Positions 1-9,651 of a DNA stretch of 64,000 bases are shown one piece after another. The DNA lies in the NCBI RefSeq assembly GCF_024300825.1, contig NZ_CP101323.1:1736001-1800000 (forward strand), in the 5' to 3' direction. Within the stretch, counting starts at the first letter, position 1, and every line of letters begins with the position of its first letter. This DNA is from Natronomonas gomsonensis. Its GTDB lineage: Archaea > Halobacteriota > Halobacteria > Halobacteriales > Haloarculaceae. Made by a program: the position numbers and the translations under genes. The notes below the pieces were generated by a model. The model was given only the letters and a program-made list of their open reading frames with translations, did no database searches and was not told the DNA's origin.

Positions 1-1
1 C

Positions 2-1285
2 GACAGCGTTTCGCCGACGAAGACGGCCGAGAACATCGACCTCCTGATTCTCGACGGCGCCTCATACGCGAGACACGAGGAGTGGCTCGCCGACTACAAG
101 AGCGACCCCCGGCGGTCGTTTCAGCCCGTGTTGTTGTTCGTCCCCGAGACGACCAGCACCGTTCCGGACGTTCACGAACGGGTCGACGATGTCGTCTCGA
201 TGCCGACCCAGAAGGAGGTGCTTCAGGCCCGGATTCACGGGCTGTTGGACCGACAGCGACTCTCCCGAGCGGTCGCCGAACGCGAAGACCGGTTTCGAAC
301 GCTGTTCGAGACCGGGCCGGACCCGGCGTTGGTCGTCACCGCCGACGGCACGGTCACCGACTCCAACGTGGCCTTCAGGGAATCCCTCGGCGTTTCGCGG
401 GAGGCGGCCAACGGCCGACGACTCGACGACTTCGAGGCGTTCGACGACGCCGCGGTCGACGCGATGACCGCTCTTTCCGACGACGACGACCGACGAACCA
501 TCTCCTACCAGTCGGCGGACGGGACGCGCCACGCCGAGTGTCGTCTCAGCGGTACGCTCGACGACGGCATCACCGCCGACACCTGCGCAGAACACATCGT
601 GATTCTGCGGGACATCACCGACGAACTCGCCTACAAGCGCGACCTCGAACGACAGGTCGACCGATTGGACGAGTTCGCGTCCATGTTGGCCCACGAACTG
701 CGGAACCCGCTCGGCATCGCCAACGGCTGGCTGGAGGAAGCCGAGGCCTCCGGCGACTCGATTGCGTTCGAGCGCGTCGATTCGGCTCACGACCGGATGC
801 GCTGTATGATAGACGACCTCCTCGCACTCGCGCAAATGGGCGAGGTCATCAGCGACCCAACTGTCGTCTCGGTGCCGGCGGTCGTCGCCGAAGCGTGGGA
901 TAGCGTGGCGACGGCCGAAGCAACGCTGCGCGTCGACGACGACCTCGATGCCGCCATCGTCGACGCGGATGCCGACCGACTGCAGGACGTTTTCGCCAAT
1001 CTGTTCCGCAATGCCGTGGAACACGGCGGAGACGACGTTACCGTGGACGTAGGCCGTTGCTCCGAGAGCTTCTACGTCGAAGACGACGGTCCGGGGTTCG
1101 AATCGACCGACCCCACCCGGCTGTTCGAGTCGGGGTACACGACTAACGCCGACGGCACCGGGTTCGGTCTCGCCATCGTGAAACAGGTCGTCGAGGCCCA
1201 CGGCTGGACCGTCCGGGCGACCGACGGCGACGCCGACGGCGCGCGGTTCGAGGTGACTGATGTCGAAACCCTCCGAGTTGCCTGA
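2..1285 (+). CDS. Sensor histidine kinase, 5' end cut by window edge
   Basis: The frame is already open at base 2, so the N-terminus lies outside the window and an internal ATG at 128 is not the start. Visible order: a degenerate receiver-like segment (about residues 1-85), a PAS domain with RFRTLFE and the DSNVAFRESLG stretch, then HisKA with the phospho-acceptor His in LAHELRNPLG (codon near 692), and a HATPase_c domain with N box NLFRNAVEHGG, G1 DDGPGF and G2 GTGFGLAIVKQV. It has no membrane segment in the visible part, so it is probably cytoplasmic. The stimulus and output are unknown. It closely resembles the kinase at 12918 over the catalytic half. Confidence 0.9.
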   Translation, partial: DSVSPTKTAENIDLLILDGASYARHEEWLADYKSDPRRSFQPVLLFVPETTSTVPDVHERVDDVVSMPTQKEVLQARIHGLLDRQRLSRAVAEREDRFRTLFETGPDPALVVTADGTVTDSNVAFRESLGVSREAANGRRLDDFEAFDDAAVDAMTALSDDDDRRTISYQSADGTRHAECRLSGTLDDGITADTCAEHIVILRDITDELAYKRDLERQVDRLDEFASMLAHELRNPLGIANGWLEEAEASGDSIAFERVDSAHDRMRCMIDDLLALAQMGEVISDPTVVSVPAVVAEAWDSVATAEATLRVDDDLDAAIVDADADRLQDVFANLFRNAVEHGGDDVTVDVGRCSESFYVEDDGPGFESTDPTRLFESGYTTNADGTGFGLAIVKQVVEAHGWTVRATDGDADGARFEVTDVETLRVA

Positions 1286-1312
1286 GATGGCTGGCGGTCT
1301 CGGAGCGTGTCG

Positions 1313-1402
1313 ATGATTCTCCAACGCGCTCTCCTGTGGCTGTACTCGGTCGCCGTTGCGATGCTCGTGCTCGGGTTGCTGGCGTCGCTGTTGGTCCTCT
1401 GA
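1313..1402 (+). CDS. Possible 29-residue single-span membrane peptide
   Basis: An ATG 28 nt after the kinase stop opens 29 codons that are almost entirely hydrophobic (MILQRALLWLYSVAVAMLVL and so on), ending in TGA at 1400. It would form one transmembrane helix. Nothing in it identifies a function. It could be a translated small protein co-transcribed with the kinase, or chance. The uninterrupted hydrophobicity favours a real gene. Confidence 0.35.
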   Translation: MILQRALLWLYSVAVAMLVLGLLASLLVL

Positions 1403-1594
1403 ATCCGCGTCTCACTTTCCGCGGCGTCGACCCGAGCCCGATAATCGGGGTTCATTCCTCGGAATATCTCGTTCGCTACGCTTCTGTAGGGTCGGTTCGC
1501 GCAAACTGATGATGCCTATATGAAACGTATCCGTATCCTGATGGCCCTATACAGCGAACGGTGGCAGTAAGCGAAAATCGGGATACAGAGATGC

Positions 1595-1796
1595 TTACTC
1601 GTCCGGTGAGACGACCACGGTTGCGGTGTGTTTTACATCACCCGTCTGGTAGGTGTAGGCAACGGTCGCGGTGCCGATGGCGTATGTCGCTCGGGGCGAC
1701 CCCGTCTCGGCGTGATACTGCCCGTTATCGACTCGATTCGACGTGAGAACGGTGAGGTCGTAGTCCCCGCGGGCGTGCTCGCCGTTTTCGTACTTG
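1595..1796 (-). pseudogene. C-terminal remnant of a beta-rich protein cut by the TnpB element
   Basis: On the minus strand about 66 codons read out of the right end of the neighbouring TnpB element and end in TAA at 1595. The peptide is acidic and beta-strand-like (ATYAIGTATVAYTYQTG, then HTATVVVSPDE). No start codon belongs to it, and codons upstream come from the tnpB 3' region, so I read it as the tail of a gene whose front was lost when the element inserted. The original family is not recognisable; a pilin or surface protein tail would fit the neighbouring pilin. Confidence 0.45.
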
Positions 1797-1803
1797 ACAT
1801 CCT

Positions 1804-1823
1804 CCCACGGCTTCAGCCGTGGG
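1804..1823 (-). repeat. Right-end hairpin of the TnpB element
   Basis: CCCACGGC-TTCA-GCCGTGGG is a perfect 8-bp stem with a 4-nt loop just inside the TTGAC motif at 1794-1798. IS200/IS605 family ends carry such subterminal hairpins, and the 3' end of tnpB transcripts in this family yields the guide-like reRNA/omega RNA. An RNA spanning the tnpB 3' end and this hairpin is therefore plausible. Confidence 0.75.
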
Positions 1824-1845
1824 ATTCCTCCAGTAGGGATGTTGG

Positions 1846-3159
1846 CTATGCCGTCCCCACGGAGGTAAGTTTCCCGTCGTCGGTACTCCGGTTTGTGCGC
1901 TCCTCGTTGGGACTTGCCCTCACGGGAGAGTGTGGTATCTCCGACCAAGTATGGTCGTCCCACGTGAGGCGCACGGGCCGTGCCATCGACCCGACCTCAG
2001 GTTTGCCAACCTGTCCTTCGAGGAACGTCCGCGAAGCGTCGAGGTCGGCGTGACCTTCGTAGCCACACGGACAGCGAAACACGTCGCCCGCCCGCTCTGT
2101 ATCGTCGCGTTCGCCACACTCCGGGCATTCCGCTGTCGTGTATGCTTCCGACCGGACTTCGACCGTGATGCCGTATTCCTCGGCGGTCATCGCCAGACGG
2201 TCGATGAACGAGCGATACGCCCAAAACTGGTGCGTCTTCTCGTTCACCTCTGCCGACCAGTGTGTCGACAGCACATCGGTGAGGTCGCCTACGTACACAG
2301 TGGCAACCCCCTCGTCGTACAGTCGTCCCATCAGGTCCCGCACGAGCGCCTCCTGTGCGTGGTCGCGCCGTCGTGTCCGGGTTCGATAGAGGCGTCGAAT
2401 CCGGTGGCTACTGTACCGGCCATCGCGGAGTTTCGACTGCAAGCGGGCAATCTCCTCGGTGGTTTCGCGGAAGCGGGCGAACAGGTCGCGACCCTCGTAG
2501 CAGTACTGTTGGCCGGTTGTGGTGGTACAGGCGACGAGGTTGTTCGCGCCCACGTCCAAGGCAGCCGATTCCTCGGCTACTGGTGAATCCCGTCGAGAAT
2601 CAGGCACGGTGACGGGCTGAAAGGCCCTGAACGTGTCGTCGACCTCGTCGTAGGACAGTTCCAACCGGCCCTGTTCGCCCTCACACTTTGGGTCGCCAGC
2701 GACTTCGAGGCGCAGCCGGTCGTGATAGCCAAGGCCGTACTCGTCTTTGAGGTCTTGGCCGACCGGGATTTCCACTCGCGACCGCTCGCCGGTTTCGAGG
2801 GTGTACTGGTCGTTGCGGATATACGTCCGCAACTCCCGCCCCTCATCCTCGTTGCCCCAATAGCCGGGCGGGGCGGTGTCCTCGCCGTCCTCTCGGGCAG
2901 CGAAGAACGAGCGCCACGCTTCGCTGTTCTTGCGGATGAGTTGTTGGGCGGTGGCAGAGCCGAGGACGCCGACGTACTGCTTGCGGTAGTCGGCAGTATC
3001 CCACACCGATTCGCCCTCGAAGAACTGCTGGCGACGTTCGTAGGTGAGCTCGTTCCAGAGGCTGGCGGAGGCGTCCAACAACTCTCGGAGCAGTTGCTTG
3101 TCCTGCGCGGAGAGCGGACGTACCGCGAACGTGTTGGTTCGCCTCACGACAACAGACAT
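1846..3159 (-). CDS. tnpB: TnpB/IS1341-type protein with altered RuvC motif
   Basis: This is a 437-residue TnpB homologue. RuvC-I is [11 protein letters not shown] with Asp202. RuvC-II reads [11 protein letters not shown], so Gly291 sits where the catalytic Glu is expected. A zinc ribbon is formed by Cys345, Cys348, Cys363 and Cys365, and RuvC-III is HADLDAS with Asp372. The second start, ATG at 3159, is chosen because [11 protein letters not shown] begins the family's usual N-terminus; an upstream ATG at 3192 would add 11 residues and overlap the palindrome. TnpB proteins are RNA-guided nucleases. With D-G-D instead of D-E-D this copy may be cleavage-defective. No tnpA accompanies it. Confidence 0.9.
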
Positions 3160-3170
3160 TAGTGACCCTA

Positions 3171-3191
3171 TGTCTAAATGCCTTTTGGACA
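3171..3191. promoter_or_regulatory. Candidate operator between tnpB and the RHH gene
   Basis: TGTCTAAA (3171-3178) and TTTGGACA (3184-3191) form an inverted repeat with 7 of 8 positions matching and a 5-nt spacer. It fills most of the 38-bp gap between the divergent tnpB (ATG 3159) and RHH (ATG 3198) starts. That is where an autoregulatory RHH dimer would block both promoters. Confidence 0.45.
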
Positions 3192-3197
3192 CAAACG

Positions 3198-3341
3198 ATG
3201 CGACCGAACATCGATATTTCGCACACGCTTAACGGGCGCGTGAAAGACTACGCCGAACAGCAGGACAAGAGCCTCGAAGAAGCCTATCAGGAGATTATCG
3301 AAGCGGGGTTGGAAGCGGTGGAACATCCAGACGGGCCGTAG
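3198..3341 (+). CDS. Small ribbon-helix-helix-like protein, divergent to tnpB
   Basis: This 47-residue protein begins [20 protein letters not shown]. The pattern is a short strand (NIDISHTL), a helix ([11 protein letters not shown]) and a second helix ([17 protein letters not shown]). It matches the CopG/Arc ribbon-helix-helix fold, whose dimers bind operator palindromes through the N-terminal strand. The gene lies inside the element, 38 bp from the tnpB start and facing away. I infer a DNA-binding partner or regulator of tnpB. The alternative is a domesticated antitoxin-like gene, but no toxin gene is adjacent. Confidence 0.6.
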
Positions 3342-3374
3342 CGCGTGGACTGCTGAGCTATGTTGTCGCTTACA

Positions 3375-3394
3375 CCCACCCCTGAAGGAGTGGG
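3375..3394. repeat. Left-end hairpin of the TnpB element
   Basis: CCCAC (3375-3379) pairs with GTGGG (3390-3394) around an almost paired CCCTGAAGGA loop. It marks the left side of the element, 34 bp past the RHH stop. Confidence 0.5.
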
Positions 3395-3481
3395 CTTTCG
3401 CCTCGCTACCTCGTCATCTACGGTTGGAACCCTCCAGCGTGACCGCGTTCGGATTTAGATCCCCGTGGTCACGCCCCCGCC

Positions 3482-4024
3482 TCAGACCGTGAACTCGGCG
3501 ATTTTGTAGGAGTCTTCGCCCTCGACAGTACCGGGGTTGTACCCCTCGACGGGGCGAGTGGTCCAGTAAATCTTGACCGTGACACCGTCGGCACTGTGTC
3601 CTTCCGGGTCGAGATACACCGTCTCACCGGAGTCCCACGTCTCGCCGATGCCGACCTGTGGATCGCCGCTTGCGGCTTCCGTGAACTTCTCCCGTTCGCT
3701 GGCGTGGTCGTCGTTTGCGGGCTTGGAACTGTCAGGTGCGCCGCCGATGTCGAGTTTCTTCGACCCGATGACGTAGAGGTTCTCCGTCTCGATGGCGGTT
3801 CCGGATTCGAGCGTGACGGCGATGATATCGTCGTCGTCGGGGCCAGCGTCGTCAAGAATCGCGTGTGATATCGATGCCTGTGGCGCCGGCGGTGATGGCG
3901 AGGGACCGAGACCGAAGACGAACGCACCGACGACGGATGAGAGAATGACGACGACAGCGACCATCAGAATCGTCCCCGTCACCGTCGATGCCCCCCGAAG
4001 ACCCCCCTGAAATGTTCTTTTCAT
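3482..4024 (-). CDS. Type IV pilin-like protein (archaeal pilin N-terminal domain)
   Basis: About 180 residues. The N-terminus has a short basic leader (MKRTFQGGLRG) followed directly by a hydrophobic helix (STVTGTILMVAVVVILSSVV), the class III signal processed by archaeal prepilin peptidase and used in pilus cores. The rest is an acidic beta-rich head. ATG at 4024 is preferred over ATG at 4039 because the TATA box centred near 4059 predicts a transcript starting near 4033, downstream of the longer start. The protein should be membrane-anchored or assembled into a surface filament. No pilus assembly genes are adjacent. Confidence 0.75.
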   Translation of the reverse strand: MKRTFQGGLRGASTVTGTILMVAVVVILSSVVGAFVFGLGPSPSPPAPQASISHAILDDAGPDDDDIIAVTLESGTAIETENLYVIGSKKLDIGGAPDSSKPANDDHASEREKFTEAASGDPQVGIGETWDSGETVYLDPEGHSADGVTVKIYWTTRPVEGYNPGTVEGEDSYKIAEFTV

Positions 4025-4053
4025 ACGCAGTTCTCTCACAGTATGGAGTGGCG

Positions 4054-4065
4054 GTATTTAAATAA
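4054..4065 (-). promoter_or_regulatory. TATA box of the pilin gene
   Basis: TATTTAAATAAT (both strands AT-only) stands out in GC-rich surroundings. It sits 30-40 nt upstream of the ATG at 4024 on the minus strand, the right distance for a transcript with a leader of roughly 9 nt. Confidence 0.6.
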
Positions 4066-4138
4066 TGAGAAAATTTCCGTGAGTGAGGGCCTACTGCGGG
4101 AGGAATCGGAATCAGGGTGGCAGTGAACCGTCCGGCCC

Positions 4139-4400
4139 TCACCGCTCGGTGTCGCCCCACCGACGGGACACCTCGGCGGTCTCTTTGTTGCTACCCAACA
4201 GCCACGGACTGTCGATGGCTCGGACAATCACAGTCAGGGCGTTCGGTGCCGCTACCGTCACATTGGCGCCGTTGACGACGATTCGAAATCGAATCGGCAA
4301 CCGAACTCCAGCTGTAGCCGTTCAGTGGGCGACTCGAACAGGTCCGAAATCGTCCCCTCGTCGGGAGTCCAGCCGACGAATTCGACGGACAGGCGTCGTT
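4139..4400 (-). pseudogene. Decayed copy of the 3' end of a YihY/BrkB-family gene
   Basis: From 4141 downward the minus strand reads VRAIDSPWLLGSNKETAEVS then RRWGDTER and stop. It parallels the intact YihY protein at 9997, which ends VRTVDRPWLLGGDKETAEVY then LRWDNSD. Similarity continues inward through RIVVNGANVTV versus RIVVDGADVTV until an in-frame stop at 4322-4324, beyond which the match fades. There is no start codon and no membrane part. This is a gene fragment, duplicated or inherited, that has drifted considerably. Confidence 0.75.
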
Positions 4401-4573
4401 ATCTGGCGGTAGACTAGATACCTGAGTGGGTCTGCGAAGCGGAATCTTCCATTCGCTATTAGTAGGTCCTCCGCCGATAAATGGGTTCTGTCGGTCACTC
4501 TGCCGGACGACCGTCTCACGACGAGGTATATGTCATAAGAGGGTTTTCAACGGAGCCAAACGAAGGCGAACAC

Positions 4574-5056
4574 ATGGAACTCATCTCAGTCGCGGCGGTC
4601 GCGGACAACGGCGTCATCGGCCGGAACGGCGAGTTACCGTGGCCGAGCATCCCGGCCGACAAACGACAGTACCGAAATCGAATCGCGGACTGGCCCGTCA
4701 TCCTCGGCCGGCGAACGTTCGACTCGATGCGCGATGACCTTCCGGGGAGAGTGCAGGTCGTGTTGAGCCGGTCGGCGTCCGACTACGGCATCGAGTCGGC
4801 ACACCACGCGTCGGGCGTCGACGATGCAATCGAAACGGTCGAATCACTCGGGGACGACCGAGCCTACGTCATCGGCGGGGCGGGCATCTACGCCCTATTC
4901 CAACCGGTCGTCGACCGGATGATACTCAGTCGGATTCCAGGCGACTACGACGGCGACGCGTACTTCCCGGAGTGGAATACCGACGAGTGGACCGTCGTCG
5001 ACCGCACTCCCTACGACGAGTTCACCCTCGAGGAGTGGGTTCGAGAGCGGCGCTAA
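4574..5056 (+). CDS. folA: Dihydrofolate reductase
   Basis: 160 residues, the normal length for DHFR. It reduces dihydrofolate to tetrahydrofolate with NADPH. Visible family motifs are the N-terminal [18 protein letters not shown] (Met20-loop region with the conserved W), [11 protein letters not shown] (cofactor-binding GR-T-F), and [10 protein letters not shown] (conserved GG before helix F). The start is the ATG directly before ELISVAAV; an in-frame ATG 93 nt upstream would add an unrelated extension. No thymidylate synthase gene adjoins it, so it stands alone here. Confidence 0.93.
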
Positions 5057-5208
5057 CGAGGGGGCTCCTAGCAAATAGAGAGACATCAGATTTGTCCGCG
5101 GCCGGCGGTTGGGATTTTTGTTCACACGAAGCAACCATGCAGCATGATTAGCCAACTCACCGCCCCGAGATGGGTGACCGACATCTTCTCGGCCTACATT
5201 GACCTCCT

Positions 5209-5228
5209 CCTCCGCGCTCACGCGGAGG
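5209..5228 (-). repeat. Right-end hairpin of the IS200/IS605 element
   Basis: CCTCCGCG (5209-5216), CTCA loop, CGCGGAGG (5221-5228) is a perfect 8-bp stem just inside the TTGAC motif. A second perfect 7-bp stem, AGGCCGA/TCGGCCT, follows at 5248-5266. Together these may be the structured 3' part of the tnpB-associated guide RNA. Confidence 0.7.
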
Positions 5229-5273
5229 AATCCCACCACGGGATTTCAGGCCGAGTGTATCGGCCTGTTGGTT

Positions 5274-6533
5274 TCAAGACGCATACGTTCCACGCGTCGT
5301 CTGCTGGTTTTCAGCATCGGCTTGGCTGTCTTGTGGCCCGGTCAAAGAGGCCCCATCCGTAGCCGAGTCATCGTCACCGGCCTTCTGCCGGGAAGTCCGG
5401 TCGCTTCGGCGGTGACTCTCTCCACTACGGTAGCGGTCTGCAATGTTTATCGCCCCGTTCACGTCGGCTTGATACTCACCGACCCAACAGCCGCCGTTCG
5501 AGCATCTGAACGTCGCCTGTCGTGGTCGATAGCCGTGTTCACCGCAGGCGTGGCACGCCTTCGACGTGTTCCGGGGATTCACCGTCTCGACGGGAATCCC
5601 CGTCTCGGCGGCTTTGTAGCGAATCTGTGCGTGGAGCTTGGCAAAGCCCCACCCGTGCAACCGCCGATTCATATACGCGCCGTAGTCCATATTCTCGCGG
5701 ATGTACGTCAGGTCTTCCAGCACCAATACTGGATTCTCGACGGACTCGGCGTACTCCACGACCTCGCGGGTTACACGGTGGAACACATCGTCAATCTGGT
5801 CCCACAGCGAGTCGCCGTAGGACTCCGCGATTCGCTCACTGCCGCGCTGCTGAAGCCGTCGCTTGGCGGTGAAGTAGGTTTTGCGGAGCCGACGAACGGC
5901 CTTGCCGTCGTCGGCCCACAGGCGGGGGCGAACCGGAGAACCGTGCTCGTCGCGGTGACACACCGTGACGAGACTCGCTTCTCCAATGTCCACGCCGATG
6001 GGCGTCCGCTCGTCGGCGGACGCCGCAGATTGGTCCTCCACGTCGCGGGTAGCGGTGATGTGGAGATACCATGTTCCGTCCCGCTCGAACAGCCGACTTT
6101 CACCCATCTCGGCGTCGTCTGCGTACAACGCTTCGAGCCACTCCCGCTGGTCGGGATTGGCGCGCGCCGGAATCCAGAGGTGGTAATCCTCGTGGTGCGG
6201 GACTTTGACGTACCACTCGATAGCGTTCTGTGGCTGGTGGTCAAGTTGCAGTCCCTCGTTGGTGAACCGTACCGGGTGGTCATCGTGCAGTTCGTCGGCG
6301 TTGTAGCTGTTCCCACAGAGTTGTGGGACGTACTTCTTGAGGGCATTTTTCGCGTAGCCACTCAGGTCGTACTCAACAACCACGTCGTTGGCCGCTGACT
6401 GTGTGTCACAGCCAGCGGCGAAGGCGGCCTGAAGCGCCTGCTGGTAGGCGTCCCGCGTCTCACGAAGCTTCTGCCGCTTGTAGACGTTCGGGTCCACAAG
6501 CTTCAGTTCGAGCGTTTTTGTGAGTTCGGTCAC
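5274..6533 (-). CDS. tnpB: TnpB, RNA-guided endonuclease of IS605 family
   Basis: 419 residues starting at GTG 6533, which overlaps the tnpA stop as GTGA; this coupling decides the start. The nuclease triad is intact: Asp182 in GVDIGEASL, Glu273 in VLVLEDLTYIR, and Asp357 in QADVNGAINIADRY. The zinc ribbon uses Cys327, Cys330, Cys344 and Cys349. In this family the protein, guided by an RNA from the element's right end, cleaves DNA next to a short motif and helps retain the element. The low-complexity acidic C-tail (residues 370-419) probably overlaps the RNA-coding region. Confidence 0.93.
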   Translation of the reverse strand: MTELTKTLELKLVDPNVYKRQKLRETRDAYQQALQAAFAAGCDTQSAANDVVVEYDLSGYAKNALKKYVPQLCGNSYNADELHDDHPVRFTNEGLQLDHQPQNAIEWYVKVPHHEDYHLWIPARANPDQREWLEALYADDAEMGESRLFERDGTWYLHITATRDVEDQSAASADERTPIGVDIGEASLVTVCHRDEHGSPVRPRLWADDGKAVRRLRKTYFTAKRRLQQRGSERIAESYGDSLWDQIDDVFHRVTREVVEYAESVENPVLVLEDLTYIRENMDYGAYMNRRLHGWGFAKLHAQIRYKAAETGIPVETVNPRNTSKACHACGEHGYRPRQATFRCSNGGCWVGEYQADVNGAINIADRYRSGESHRRSDRTSRQKAGDDDSATDGASLTGPQDSQADAENQQTTRGTYAS

Positions 6534-6919
6534 GCTTCGGCCTCCTTGTGTCGGTTGATGTAGTTCTCGACAGTTTCGCTGGAGACGTGGCCGGCTGTTC
6601 CGGCGTAGTAGCCGCGTTCCCACCGGATTTTCTCGTCGTCGTGGTCGGCGTGGCGGTGGTTGTATTTCCGTGAGGAAATGCCCTTGAACCAGTTGGCGAG
6701 CAGTGATGGTCTGTGTTTGGGCGGGCTACTGACGAACAGGTGAACGTGGTCGGGCTGAACAGTCAGGTTTTGAATGTCCAAGCCTTTCTCGTCGGCAATT
6801 TCGTGGAGGATGGATTCCACACGGTCGGCAACTTCTCCCGTCAGTACCGCGTTGCGGTACTTCGGGAGCCACACTATGTGGTAGTTGAGGTTGTAGGTTG
6901 CGTGCCGTGTGGTCTTCAT
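6530..6919 (-). CDS. tnpA: IS200-type Y1 transposase TnpA
   Basis: 129 residues, the usual length of HUH Y1 transposases. The HUH pair is His58 and His60 in PDHVHLFV, and the nucleophile is Tyr120 in SSETVENYI. These enzymes excise and insert single-stranded element DNA through subterminal hairpins without duplicating the target. The gene is translationally coupled to tnpB. An AT-rich TATA candidate lies near 6950-6957 on the minus strand, predicting a very short leader. The element appears intact and may be mobile. Confidence 0.95.
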   Translation of the reverse strand: MKTTRHATYNLNYHIVWLPKYRNAVLTGEVADRVESILHEIADEKGLDIQNLTVQPDHVHLFVSSPPKHRPSLLANWFKGISSRKYNHRHADHDDEKIRWERGYYAGTAGHVSSETVENYINRHKEAEA

Positions 6920-7025
6920 CCGTGCTACACACTATGGTTATATCATAGCAAATATTTTGTGGAAGCGGTGGGAAATCCAGCCCTGCAATAGAACGGTGGA
7001 CTGTCACACTATGCTGTCCGCTCGA

Positions 7026-7093
7026 CCCCCGCCTGTTCGCTCCTCGGTTCCGACAGAGCGTCGGAACACTCGTCACTCACGGGAAGGCGGGGG
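7026..7093. repeat. Left-end inverted repeats of the IS200/IS605 element
   Basis: Outer arms CCCCCGCC (7026-7033) and GGCGGGGG (7086-7093) pair perfectly. Nested inside, GTTCCGAC (7047-7054) pairs with GTCGGAAC (7060-7067) around a 5-nt loop. This is the position expected for the left-end structure recognised by TnpA. Confidence 0.6.
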
Positions 7094-7098
7094 TATGC

Positions 7099-7449
7099 GC
7101 TCGTATCTCTATCACCGAGGAGGTGTACGTCGCCTACGATGAGGACACCGAACGGGCCCTGATGGAACTCCAGCAAATCGCCAGCGACCACGACCCGATT
7201 CACGACGACCCGGCGCCGAACGCGCGCATCGTCGACTTGGGCAAGAACGAAGTCACCGTACAAGCCGAATTTTGGGTCGAAGACCCGATGAAAAGCGACG
7301 TTCCGACGGTTCGCTCCGACTTCCGGCGACTCGTGAAACGTCGCTTCGACGAGGAAGGCATTACGCTGGCTCCGCCGTCCGCACAGTCGCTCTCCGGGGA
7401 ACTCACGGTGGACGAACGTCGATCCGACCCAACCTCGAATGGGTCGTAA
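7099..7449 (+). pseudogene. MscS-family channel, C-terminal fragment only
   Basis: The frame resembles the cytoplasmic C-terminal domain of haloarchaeal MscS channels: VAYDEDTERALMELQQIASD, then VTVQAEFWVEDPMKSDVP, then RRLVKRRFDEEGITLAPP. Family-like sequence (ISITEEVYVAYDEDTE) extends upstream of the first usable start (GTG 7123), right up to the insertion-sequence end near 7098. The transmembrane and pore helices are absent, so the gene was beheaded at the element junction. No matching N-terminal half is seen on the other side of the element. It probably makes no functional channel. Confidence 0.75.
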
Positions 7450-7554
7450 AAAGTGAGTTCGTTCAGCGCAGTGACCGGCGAAGGAGAACCGAGTTCCCGT
7501 GACGGTCGTCCGGTCGCGTCGGGACGTCTACTCTACGGTGGGTAGAGCTGCCGC

Positions 7555-9651
7555 CTAGTTGGTGATTACGTGGGAGACGCAGTCCTCGTCCACGAAGGTC
7601 CCATCGGCGGATAGTCGGGCACAGTTCTGGACGCCGTCGGAGCCACCGGGGAACTGGTTGGCCGGCACGACCTCGACGGTCAACACGAGCGTCGGGAGAC
7701 ACTGACCCGCGCCGAGTCCGCCACTGTTCGGGTGCGTGGCGGTGACCGTTCCACCGCTTGCCGAGGCGCTCCAGCCGCTTCCGGACGCCGAGACGAACGA
7801 GATACCGTCCGGCAGGTCGTCAGTGACGGTAATCTGGCCGTCGCAGGTTTGCTCTTGAAGCATACACACGTCGATTTCGTAGGTCGACTGCTGGCCGTAC
7901 TTGAACTGGCCACCGGTCGTTTTCTCGATGTTGAGGCCGTCACAGGAGCTCTGTGGGGGGTGGACCGGGACGCTGACGCAGCTACGGTTGTTCCTGGCGT
8001 TCGCGTCGTCGGTTTCGATGCTCGCACAGTTGCGAATCGCATCGCCGGTCTCGTCTATCGAGCCGATTTCGACCTCGAGGGTGAGCGTGGGGAGGCAGTC
8101 GCCGGGCGCCAGCCCGCCGCTGTTCTGGTGTTCGGCGGTGACGACGCCACCGCTCACGGAGAGCGACCAGCCGCTGCCGCTGTTGTTGAGGAACGTCACG
8201 CCGTTCGGCAGCGCGTCGACGACCGTGACTCCGCCGCGACAGCGTCCGTCACCCCTGTTGCAGACGGTAATGTCGAACTCGGTGGTGTCGCCCGGCTCGA
8301 CGTGGGTCCCATCGTGGGTCTTCTCGATAGTCAAATCGCACTTACCCTCGATGGCTTCGGTATCGACCGGGACGCTGACGCAGCTCTGGTTGTTGGTCGA
8401 GTCGGCATCGTCGGATTTGATGCTCGCACAGTTGCGGACCGCGTCGCCGACCTCGTCTATCGAGCCGAACTCCACTTCCAGAGTGAGCGTGGGGAGACAG
8501 TCGCCGGGCGCCAGCCCGCCGCTGTTCTGGTGGGTGGCCGTGACGACACCGCCCGTCTCGGTAACCGACCAGCCGCTGCCAGTGCTGGCGAGGAACGTCA
8601 CGCCGTTCGGCAGCGCGTCGACGACCGGAACCTCGCCCCGGCAGAGTTCGTCGCCGACGTTACAGACGGTGATTTCGAACTCGGTCGTACTGCCGGGTGC
8701 GACCGCCTCACCGTCGTGTCCTTTCCGTATCGAGAGGTCACAGACGCCCCCGACGGTTTCGGTATCGACCGGGACGCTGATGCAGCTACGGTTGTTGGTC
8801 GAGTCGGCATCACGGTAGTCGAGACTCGCACAGTTGCGAACCGCGTCGCCGGTCTCGTCTATCGTGCCGACTTCGACCTCGAGGGTGAGCGTCGGGAGAC
8901 AGTCGCCGGGCGCCAATCCGCCGCTGTTCTGGTGTTCGGCGGTGACGGTGCCGCCCGTCTCGCTGACCGACCAGCCACTACCGGTGCCGCCGAGGAACGT
9001 CAGGCCGCTCGGCAGGGCGTCGACGACCGGAATCGGGCCCCGACAGCGCTGGCGCCCTTCGTTACAGACGGTGATTTCGAACTCGCTCGTACTACCGGGC
9101 GTGGCCAAGTCTCCGATGTGTTCTTTCGTTATCGAGAGGTCACACGCACCCTCGCCGGTTCCCGTAACCGGGATGGTGGCACAGTCGGTCTTGTAGGCCA
9201 GGTCCGCATCGCCCTGTTCGACGGTGACACAGTTGCGGATTGCGTCGCCGACCTCGTCCTGCGAGCCGACATCGACCGCCATGGTCAGTGTCGGCAGACA
9301 CTCACCGGAACCCAGGCCGGCCGCGTTGGGGTGCTCGAAGGTCACGACCCCGCCGCTTTCGGTGGCGCTCCAGTCGGTCCCCGTATGCGCGGCGAACGTC
9401 ACGCCGTTCGGCAGGTCGTCCGTAACGGTCACGGCGTCCTCACACGTACCGTCGCCGTCGTTGCAGACTGTAATCTCGAACTCCGTAGCGCCGCCGTACG
9501 AGACGGAGTCGCCGACGCTCTCCTTGGTGACCGACAGGTCACACGGGTTGCCCGAAGGGCCGCCCCAGGAACACCCGGCTATCGAGGCCGCACCACCCGC
9601 AGTGACCACTTGGAGGATACGCCGTCGACTGATTGACTCGTCGTCGGTCAT
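7555..9651 (-). CDS. Tat lipoprotein with five DUF11-like six-cysteine repeats
   Basis: 698 residues. A twin-arginine signal (SRRRILQVVTAGGAASIAGC) ends in a lipobox Cys27, so the protein is exported folded and lipid-anchored outside. Five tandem repeats begin at Cys37, 170, 304, 438 and 570, each about 133 residues, with phrases such as EFEITVCN, LPNGVTFL, SGSGWSV and GDCLPTLTLEVE. They resemble DUF11 (archaeal/bacterial surface beta-sandwich) domains. Each repeat has six Cys, with offsets 0, 26, 33, 81, 104 and 120 in repeats 1-4 and nearly the same in repeat 5. Three disulfides per domain are inferred. No partner gene is adjacent. Confidence 0.85.
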   Translation of the reverse strand: MTDDESISRRRILQVVTAGGAASIAGCSWGGPSGNPCDLSVTKESVGDSVSYGGATEFEITVCNDGDGTCEDAVTVTDDLPNGVTFAAHTGTDWSATESGGVVTFEHPNAAGLGSGECLPTLTMAVDVGSQDEVGDAIRNCVTVEQGDADLAYKTDCATIPVTGTGEGACDLSITKEHIGDLATPGSTSEFEITVCNEGRQRCRGPIPVVDALPSGLTFLGGTGSGWSVSETGGTVTAEHQNSGGLAPGDCLPTLTLEVEVGTIDETGDAVRNCASLDYRDADSTNNRSCISVPVDTETVGGVCDLSIRKGHDGEAVAPGSTTEFEITVCNVGDELCRGEVPVVDALPNGVTFLASTGSGWSVTETGGVVTATHQNSGGLAPGDCLPTLTLEVEFGSIDEVGDAVRNCASIKSDDADSTNNQSCVSVPVDTEAIEGKCDLTIEKTHDGTHVEPGDTTEFDITVCNRGDGRCRGGVTVVDALPNGVTFLNNSGSGWSLSVSGGVVTAEHQNSGGLAPGDCLPTLTLEVEIGSIDETGDAIRNCASIETDDANARNNRSCVSVPVHPPQSSCDGLNIEKTTGGQFKYGQQSTYEIDVCMLQEQTCDGQITVTDDLPDGISFVSASGSGWSASASGGTVTATHPNSGGLGAGQCLPTLVLTVEVVPANQFPGGSDGVQNCARLSADGTFVDEDCVSHVITN

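What the first reader, a model, noticed from the sequence alone, without database searches (positions are those of the whole stretch)
1794..3400. Stand-alone TnpB with a D-G-D nuclease triad and a divergent RHH partner
Seen: RuvC-I Asp202 and RuvC-III Asp372 are intact, but the second catalytic position in [11 protein letters not shown] is Gly291. The other TnpB in this window has Glu at the same place in VLVLEDLTYIR. The element lacks tnpA but carries a 47-residue ribbon-helix-helix gene facing away from tnpB. Known: TnpB cleavage needs the D-E-D triad, and RuvC-inactivated TnpB derivatives can act as RNA-guided repressors. Inference: this may be a binding-only TnpB, perhaps with the RHH protein as co-regulator. 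If other haloarchaeal copies share the D-G-D, it would be a lineage rather than a decayed copy.
Basis: partly seen in the sequence, partly recalled or inferred. Interest (0 to 1): 0.78.

Follow-up and report, generated by a model that had tools for sequence, protein, structure and literature searches.

The report
Fanzor-like TnpB with partner regulator gene
A small haloarchaeal mobile element carries an RNA-guided DNA-cutting enzyme that looked broken but has its third catalytic residue in a different place, as eukaryotic Fanzor enzymes do, and beside it sits a small conserved DNA-binding-type gene that probably controls both genes.

Summary
The Gly at residue 291 of this TnpB is real, but the enzyme does not look dead. 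A second conserved glutamate, E338, lies exactly six residues before the zinc-ribbon CxxC: the published 'alternative' RuvC-II position (E_alt) of Fanzors and a TnpB clade. All 96 distinct complete relatives are D-G-E-D; canonical TnpBs carry Glu at 291 and none at 338. tnpB is under purifying selection (dN/dS about 0.15), its 3' end overlaps a conserved guide-RNA scaffold, and the element's ends are intact (1794-3412, TGAC motif). The 'binding-only' reading is not supported; a functional nuclease is expected but was not shown. The second observation is stronger than stated: the 47-residue gene is divergent from tnpB at a 32-44 bp gap in 47/47 paired copies, and the gap holds an 8-bp-periodic AGAC repeat like a ribbon-helix-helix (RHH) operator. 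Other branches instead carry an unrelated small gene with a different palindrome, or a tnpA operon, never both. This suggests exchange of tnpA for a self-regulating RHH module. The nuclease type is known; the archaeal lineage (95 of 96 escape the published signature through a CxC ribbon) and its RHH coupling look like a new variant.

The parts
1794..3412 (-). Whole IS200/IS605-type (IS1341-like, tnpA-less) element, 1619 bp
   Evidence: Flanks diverge right outside the corresponding points in clade copies
1846..3159 (-). tnpB, 437 aa, E_alt-type RNA-guided nuclease
   Evidence: NF040570 guided_TnpB 137 bits over cut-off 100; PF01385, PF07282; fold matches Cas12f, TnpB, Fanzor2
2554..2556 (-). 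RuvC-I catalytic Asp202 codon
   Evidence: Invariant in 24-sequence alignment A1
2287..2289 (-). Gly291 codon at the canonical RuvC-II Glu position
   Evidence: Gly in 96/96 complete relatives
2146..2148 (-). Glu338 codon, alternative RuvC-II glutamate (ExxxxxxCxxC)
   Evidence: Glu in 96/96 complete relatives; follows strand 332-337 in the model
2044..2046 (-). RuvC-III catalytic Asp372 codon
   Evidence: Invariant; start of helix 371-384 in the model
1794..1993 (-). Guide-RNA (omegaRNA) scaffold region, overlapping the tnpB 3' end; exact 5' end not known
   Evidence: Nucleotide conservation through synonymous sites, dS 0.23 vs 0.92 in the core; alignment and consensus fold
1804..1823 (-). 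Right-end hairpin CCCACGGCTGAAGCCGTGGG
   Evidence: Compensatory pairs, e.g. GC:15/CG:13 and GC:16/CG:15 at two pairs
1774..1793 (-). Predicted guide GTACGAAAACGGCGAGCACG, derived from the right flank
   Evidence: Flank begins directly after conserved TGTCAA
3413..3416 (-). Predicted TAM 5'-TGAC at the left end
   Evidence: Present in 26 of 28 copies anchored on the left-end hairpin without requiring it
3375..3394 (-). Left-end hairpin
   Evidence: Conserved in clade copies; similar hairpin in tnpA-bearing relatives
3198..3341 (+). 47-aa RHH-like protein (family A), divergent from tnpB
   Evidence: 47/47 paired genomic hits divergent with 32-44 bp gap; dN/dS 0.16; two-helix model
3160..3197 (.). 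38-bp divergent promoter/operator region with 8-bp-periodic GTC/AGAC repeat (middle repeat changed to AGGC in this copy)
   Evidence: AGAC-N4-RGAC in 44/55 distinct intergenic regions, shuffles at most 2

Best explanation
This is a tnpA-less IS200/IS605-type element encoding an RNA-guided nuclease of the E_alt TnpB type. Its RuvC triad is D202-E338-D372; G291 only marks where other TnpBs keep their glutamate. The 3' end of the tnpB transcript is processed into a guide RNA whose guide is the right-flanking sequence. TnpB then recognises TGAC plus that sequence and should cut DNA lacking the element, favouring its retention. The divergent 47-aa RHH-like protein most likely binds the 8-bp-periodic AGAC repeats in the shared 38-bp promoter and represses tnpB and its own gene. 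Mobilisation, when it happens, probably uses a Y1 TnpA in trans. Shown: residues, conservation, ends, scaffold conservation, gene pairing, repeats. Inferred: cleavage, guide processing, operator binding, mobilisation in trans.
For: G291 and E338 co-occur in 96/96 complete distinct relatives; the canonical TnpBs recovered have Glu at 291 and Pro or Ala at 338. E338 is six residues before CxxC in 96/96, the E_alt definition of PMC10711439. In the model E338 directly follows strand 332-337 before the zinc ribbon, as described for the Fanzor SpuFz1 (PMC11423790). The fold matches Cas12f, ISDra2 TnpB and mimivirus Fanzor2, Z 16.6-21.4. tnpB dN/dS 0.155, RHH 0.164, none above 1 in 276 and 236 pairs. 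Guide-RNA region. Divergent RHH. Operator-like repeats with GAC-GAC spacing of 8 bp in 59 pairs. Partner genes RHH-A, RHH-B and tnpA were never found together in one element.
Against: No activity was measured. Copies share ancestry, so counts are not independent and shuffles overstate significance. The RHH assignment rests on a small low-pTM model (0.60) with insignificant fold matches. Some related E_alt TnpBs, including two in this genome (L002, L003), have no detectable RHH. No RNA data were available.
Confidence: 0.8

Rival explanations
1. [quoted passage not shown]
For: The canonical glutamate is absent in the whole lineage.
Against: An invariant glutamate sits at the published E_alt position. 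Asp202 and Asp372 are invariant. Transposon ends persist and the guide differs between most copies, unlike a domesticated repressor with a fixed target.
Confidence: 0.06
2. A decayed passenger copy with no present function.
For: Some relatives are broken by frameshifts or stops (L014, L052, L055), and the window copy has one operator repeat changed.
Against: This copy is open over 437 codons with all motifs; family-wide dN/dS is 0.155; ends and guide-RNA hairpin are intact.
Confidence: 0.08
3. The RHH-like protein is not a promoter repressor but works in transposition (replacing a tnpA function at the ends) or as a partner of the TnpB ribonucleoprotein.
For: It occupies the place of tnpA in a mutually exclusive way.
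Against: The periodic repeats lie in the divergent promoter, and branches with the other small gene have a different palindrome there. RHH proteins are typically DNA-binding autoregulators (general knowledge).
Confidence: 0.12

Closest known systems
E_alt TnpBs with D-(hydrophobic)-G RuvC-I (Yoon et al. 2023, PMC10711439)
   Same: Glutamate six residues before CxxC, no glutamate at the canonical position, D-V/I-G RuvC-I
   Different: Second half of the zinc ribbon is CxC, so 95 of 96 copies fail the published search pattern; archaeal; tnpA-less with a divergent RHH-like gene
Fanzor1/Fanzor2 and cyanobacterial pro-Fanzors
   Same: Same relocated RuvC-II glutamate; overall fold similar to mimivirus Fanzor2 9b0l (Z 16.8)
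   Different: DVG instead of DPG; IS200/IS605-type ends instead of IS607; prokaryotic
ISDra2 TnpB and other canonical IS200/IS605 TnpBs
   Same: Overall fold, guide RNA from the right end, TAM at the left end, right-flank guide
   Different: Canonical RuvC-II Glu replaced by Gly; no tnpA in this element
IS200-605 element of Sulfolobus monocaudavirus SMV1 and ISDka2 of Hyperthermophilic Archaeal Virus 2
   Same: D-G-E-D signature at the same four positions
   Different: Carry tnpA, about 31-33% identical
TldR (TnpB-like nuclease-dead repressors)
   Same: TnpB-derived, guide RNA
   Different: TldRs have lost RuvC residues and gained non-transposon partner genes and fixed targets (PMC13418256); here the triad and ends are kept

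Membership tests
TnpB RNA-guided nuclease family | Family profile match (NF040570, PF07282) and TnpB/Cas12f fold | tested here: met
   137 bits vs cut-off 100; Z 16.6-21.4 to TnpB and Cas12f
TnpB RNA-guided nuclease family | RNA-guided DNA cleavage | not testable with these tools
   No experiment possible
E_alt TnpB clade | Glu six residues before the first CxxC and non-Glu at the canonical site | tested here: met
   96/96
E_alt TnpB clade | Full published search pattern D{P}G-x(120,160)-E-x6-CxxC-x(12,18)-CxxC-x(4,8)-D (a search tool, not the clade definition) | tested here: not met
   1 of 96 match; 95 have CxC in the second half
E_alt TnpB clade | Position in the published TnpB/Fanzor tree | not tested
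   Published tree not available; own tree only separates these from four canonical copies
Fanzor / pro-Fanzor | DPG at RuvC-I | tested here: not met
   DVG; 0 of 96 match DPG pattern
TldR | Loss of RuvC catalytic residues | tested here: not met
   D202, E338, D372 invariant
IS200/IS605 element | Subterminal hairpins at both ends and a left-end TAM | tested here: met
IS200/IS605 element | Y1 tnpA in the element | tested here: not met
   None in 1794-3412; present in 11 related loci
RHH (MetJ/Arc) DNA-binding superfamily (47-aa protein) | Short N-terminal strand plus two helices, dimeric | tested here: inconclusive
   Helices 11-21 and 26-42, pLDDT 86; top Foldseek hits include CdbA, MatP, TacA2 with E above 1; no HMM hit
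sot0042/sot2652 RNA families (RF02656, RF02657) | Rfam covariance model match | tested here: not met
   No match up to E = 1 in 1-9000

The most novel reading that the evidence does not exclude
An archaeal branch of E_alt (Fanzor-like active site) TnpBs has repeatedly exchanged its tnpA for one of two unrelated small divergent RHH-like genes, each with its own operator, producing self-regulated RNA-guided elements without a transposase.
Probability: 0.5. Interest if true: 0.6.

Novelty: new variant of a known kind. Interest (0 to 1): 0.47.

Why it matters
It corrects a tempting false reading: Gly at the canonical RuvC-II site does not mean a dead TnpB, so screens for nuclease-dead TnpBs must check the E_alt position. 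It points to a large, genetically tractable haloarchaeal pool of nucleases with a Fanzor-type active site that the published search pattern misses. The RHH pairing also gives a testable answer to how tnpA-less TnpB elements limit their own nuclease.

Tried and rejected
Nuclease-dead/TldR reading rejected on E338. Rfam sot families gave no match. A residue-by-residue alignment to Fanzor2 could not be printed because only the top five chains are shown. A shared guide beginning TGGGCGCGATCTGGGC in about ten copies first looked like convergent targeting; several of those copies have the same flanking genes, so shared descent of one locus is simpler. My first TAM count (22/22) was biased because the pattern required TGAC; it was replaced by an unbiased count, 26/28. 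Family A and B small proteins: profile comparison gave probability 8.8%, so common origin is not shown. The one family-A hit beside a canonical TnpB (L012) lies next to that locus's E_alt element and was not counted. Search for the uninterrupted target gene gave only 32-37% identical relatives, so no clean empty site was found.

Full report
The 47-residue gene is at 3198-3341 on the plus strand, 38 bp from the tnpB start. No tnpA lies inside the element; the one at 6530-6919 belongs to the next element.

The nuclease is probably not dead. Yoon et al. (PMC10711439) describe TnpBs and Fanzors whose RuvC-II glutamate has moved from about 50 residues before the zinc ribbon (E_can) to six residues before it (E_alt). 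Here E338 is exactly there ([11 protein letters not shown]). Among 109 distinct TnpB ORFs from fetched loci, 96 members of this lineage are complete at all four positions and all 96 are D-G-E-D. Canonical TnpBs from the same genomes have Glu at the first site and Pro or Ala at the second. The same signature appears in TnpBs of two crenarchaeal virus genomes, so it is wider than haloarchaea. In the AlphaFold2 model (mean pLDDT 80.6) E338 follows strand 332-337 just before the zinc ribbon, and D372 starts helix 371-384. This is the arrangement reported for Fanzor, with SpuFz1 D383/E541/D606 (PMC11423790). The fold matches Cas12f, ISDra2 TnpB and mimivirus Fanzor2. Distances could not be measured because coordinates are not exposed. 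RuvC-I is DVG, not DPG, so this is not a Fanzor or pro-Fanzor. Because the second half of the ribbon is CxC, 95 of 96 members fail the published search pattern.

The element is maintained. Median pairwise dN/dS is 0.155 for tnpB, 0.128 for its core and 0.164 for the RHH gene. Synonymous divergence falls from 0.92 in the core to 0.23 in the last 40 codons, as expected if the guide-RNA scaffold overlaps the end of the gene. The right-end hairpin keeps pairing through changes on both sides. Nearly all copies end in a GGATGTCAA-type motif, after which sequences diverge. The left end is preceded by TGAC in 26 of 28 copies found without requiring it. In the window this gives an element of 1619 bp (1794-3412), a TGAC motif at 3413-3416 and a predicted guide GTACGAAAACGGCGAGCACG.

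The RHH partner is a real, conserved feature. In 292 class-level genomes, 89 have the 47-aa family. In the hits that could be paired with listed TnpBs, 47 of 47 are divergent with gaps of 32-44 bp. Below 76% identity that TnpB list was chosen partly by proximity, but the 39 best TnpBs (76-100% identical) were taken in order and all have it. Of 20 further hits fetched, 18 lie next to an E_alt tnpB gene or remnant, always divergent. RefSeq calls the protein hypothetical. It matches no Pfam or NCBIfam model; its model has helices 11-21 and 26-42, and the best, non-significant, structural matches are mostly RHH proteins.

The intergenic gap looks like an operator. AGAC-N4-RGAC occurs in 44 of 55 distinct family-A gaps (at most 2 in base shuffles), and GAC-GAC spacing is 8 bp in 59 pairs. 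The window copy has one repeat changed to AGGC. MetJ-type RHH repressors bind 8-bp repeats (general knowledge). Copies with a different small divergent gene (family B, no demonstrable homology to A) have an ACACA...TGTGT-type palindrome instead. Eleven relatives have an upstream Y1 tnpA and neither small gene. On the tree the partner states need several changes, at least two each for RHH-A and tnpA and three for RHH-B on well-supported branches. Ends of tnpA-bearing and RHH-bearing elements are similar, so mobilisation in trans is plausible. Haloarchaeal tnpB-only elements have long been noted (PMC3119063), but I found no description of this RHH partner in the searchable library; that library lacks most subscription journals.

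Verdict: the Gly291 is a lineage trait with a relocated catalytic glutamate, a known nuclease type in a new archaeal, RHH-coupled variant. Main uncertainties are the absence of any activity or RNA data, shared ancestry among copies, and the unproven RHH fold.

Noticed in passing
L123 907-2094 (+), L128 490-1548 (-): The RHH-A-like motif (MRPNVDIPWSxHGxIKExA...EEAYIETL) also forms the N-terminal part of otherwise unrelated 350-400 aa proteins in other haloarchaea, suggesting the same DNA-binding domain was recruited elsewhere.
   Followed up: partly
L013, L015, L017, L018, L020, L029, L111, L116 (right flank): About ten copies in different genera share the same predicted guide beginning TGGGCGCGATCTGGGC; several also share neighbouring genes (an SRAP-like MCGRNSLF... 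ORF), so this is probably one inherited locus rather than repeated targeting.
   Followed up: partly
window 1595-1793 (-): Joining the flanks at ATGAC|GTACGAA would give an ATG-started reading frame (MTYENGEHARGDYD...); only 32-37% identical relatives of that frame were found, within larger proteins.
   Followed up: partly
window 5191-6919 (-): A neighbouring IS200/IS605 element with tnpA plus canonical tnpB; its right end gives a weak HgcC-like Rfam match (25.6 bits, below gathering 50).
   Followed up: no
G000:C1:9571-10869 (L002) and G000:C1:1728523-1729821 (L003), outside the window: Two more E_alt TnpBs (66% identical) in the same genome, without a detectable RHH gene.
   Followed up: partly
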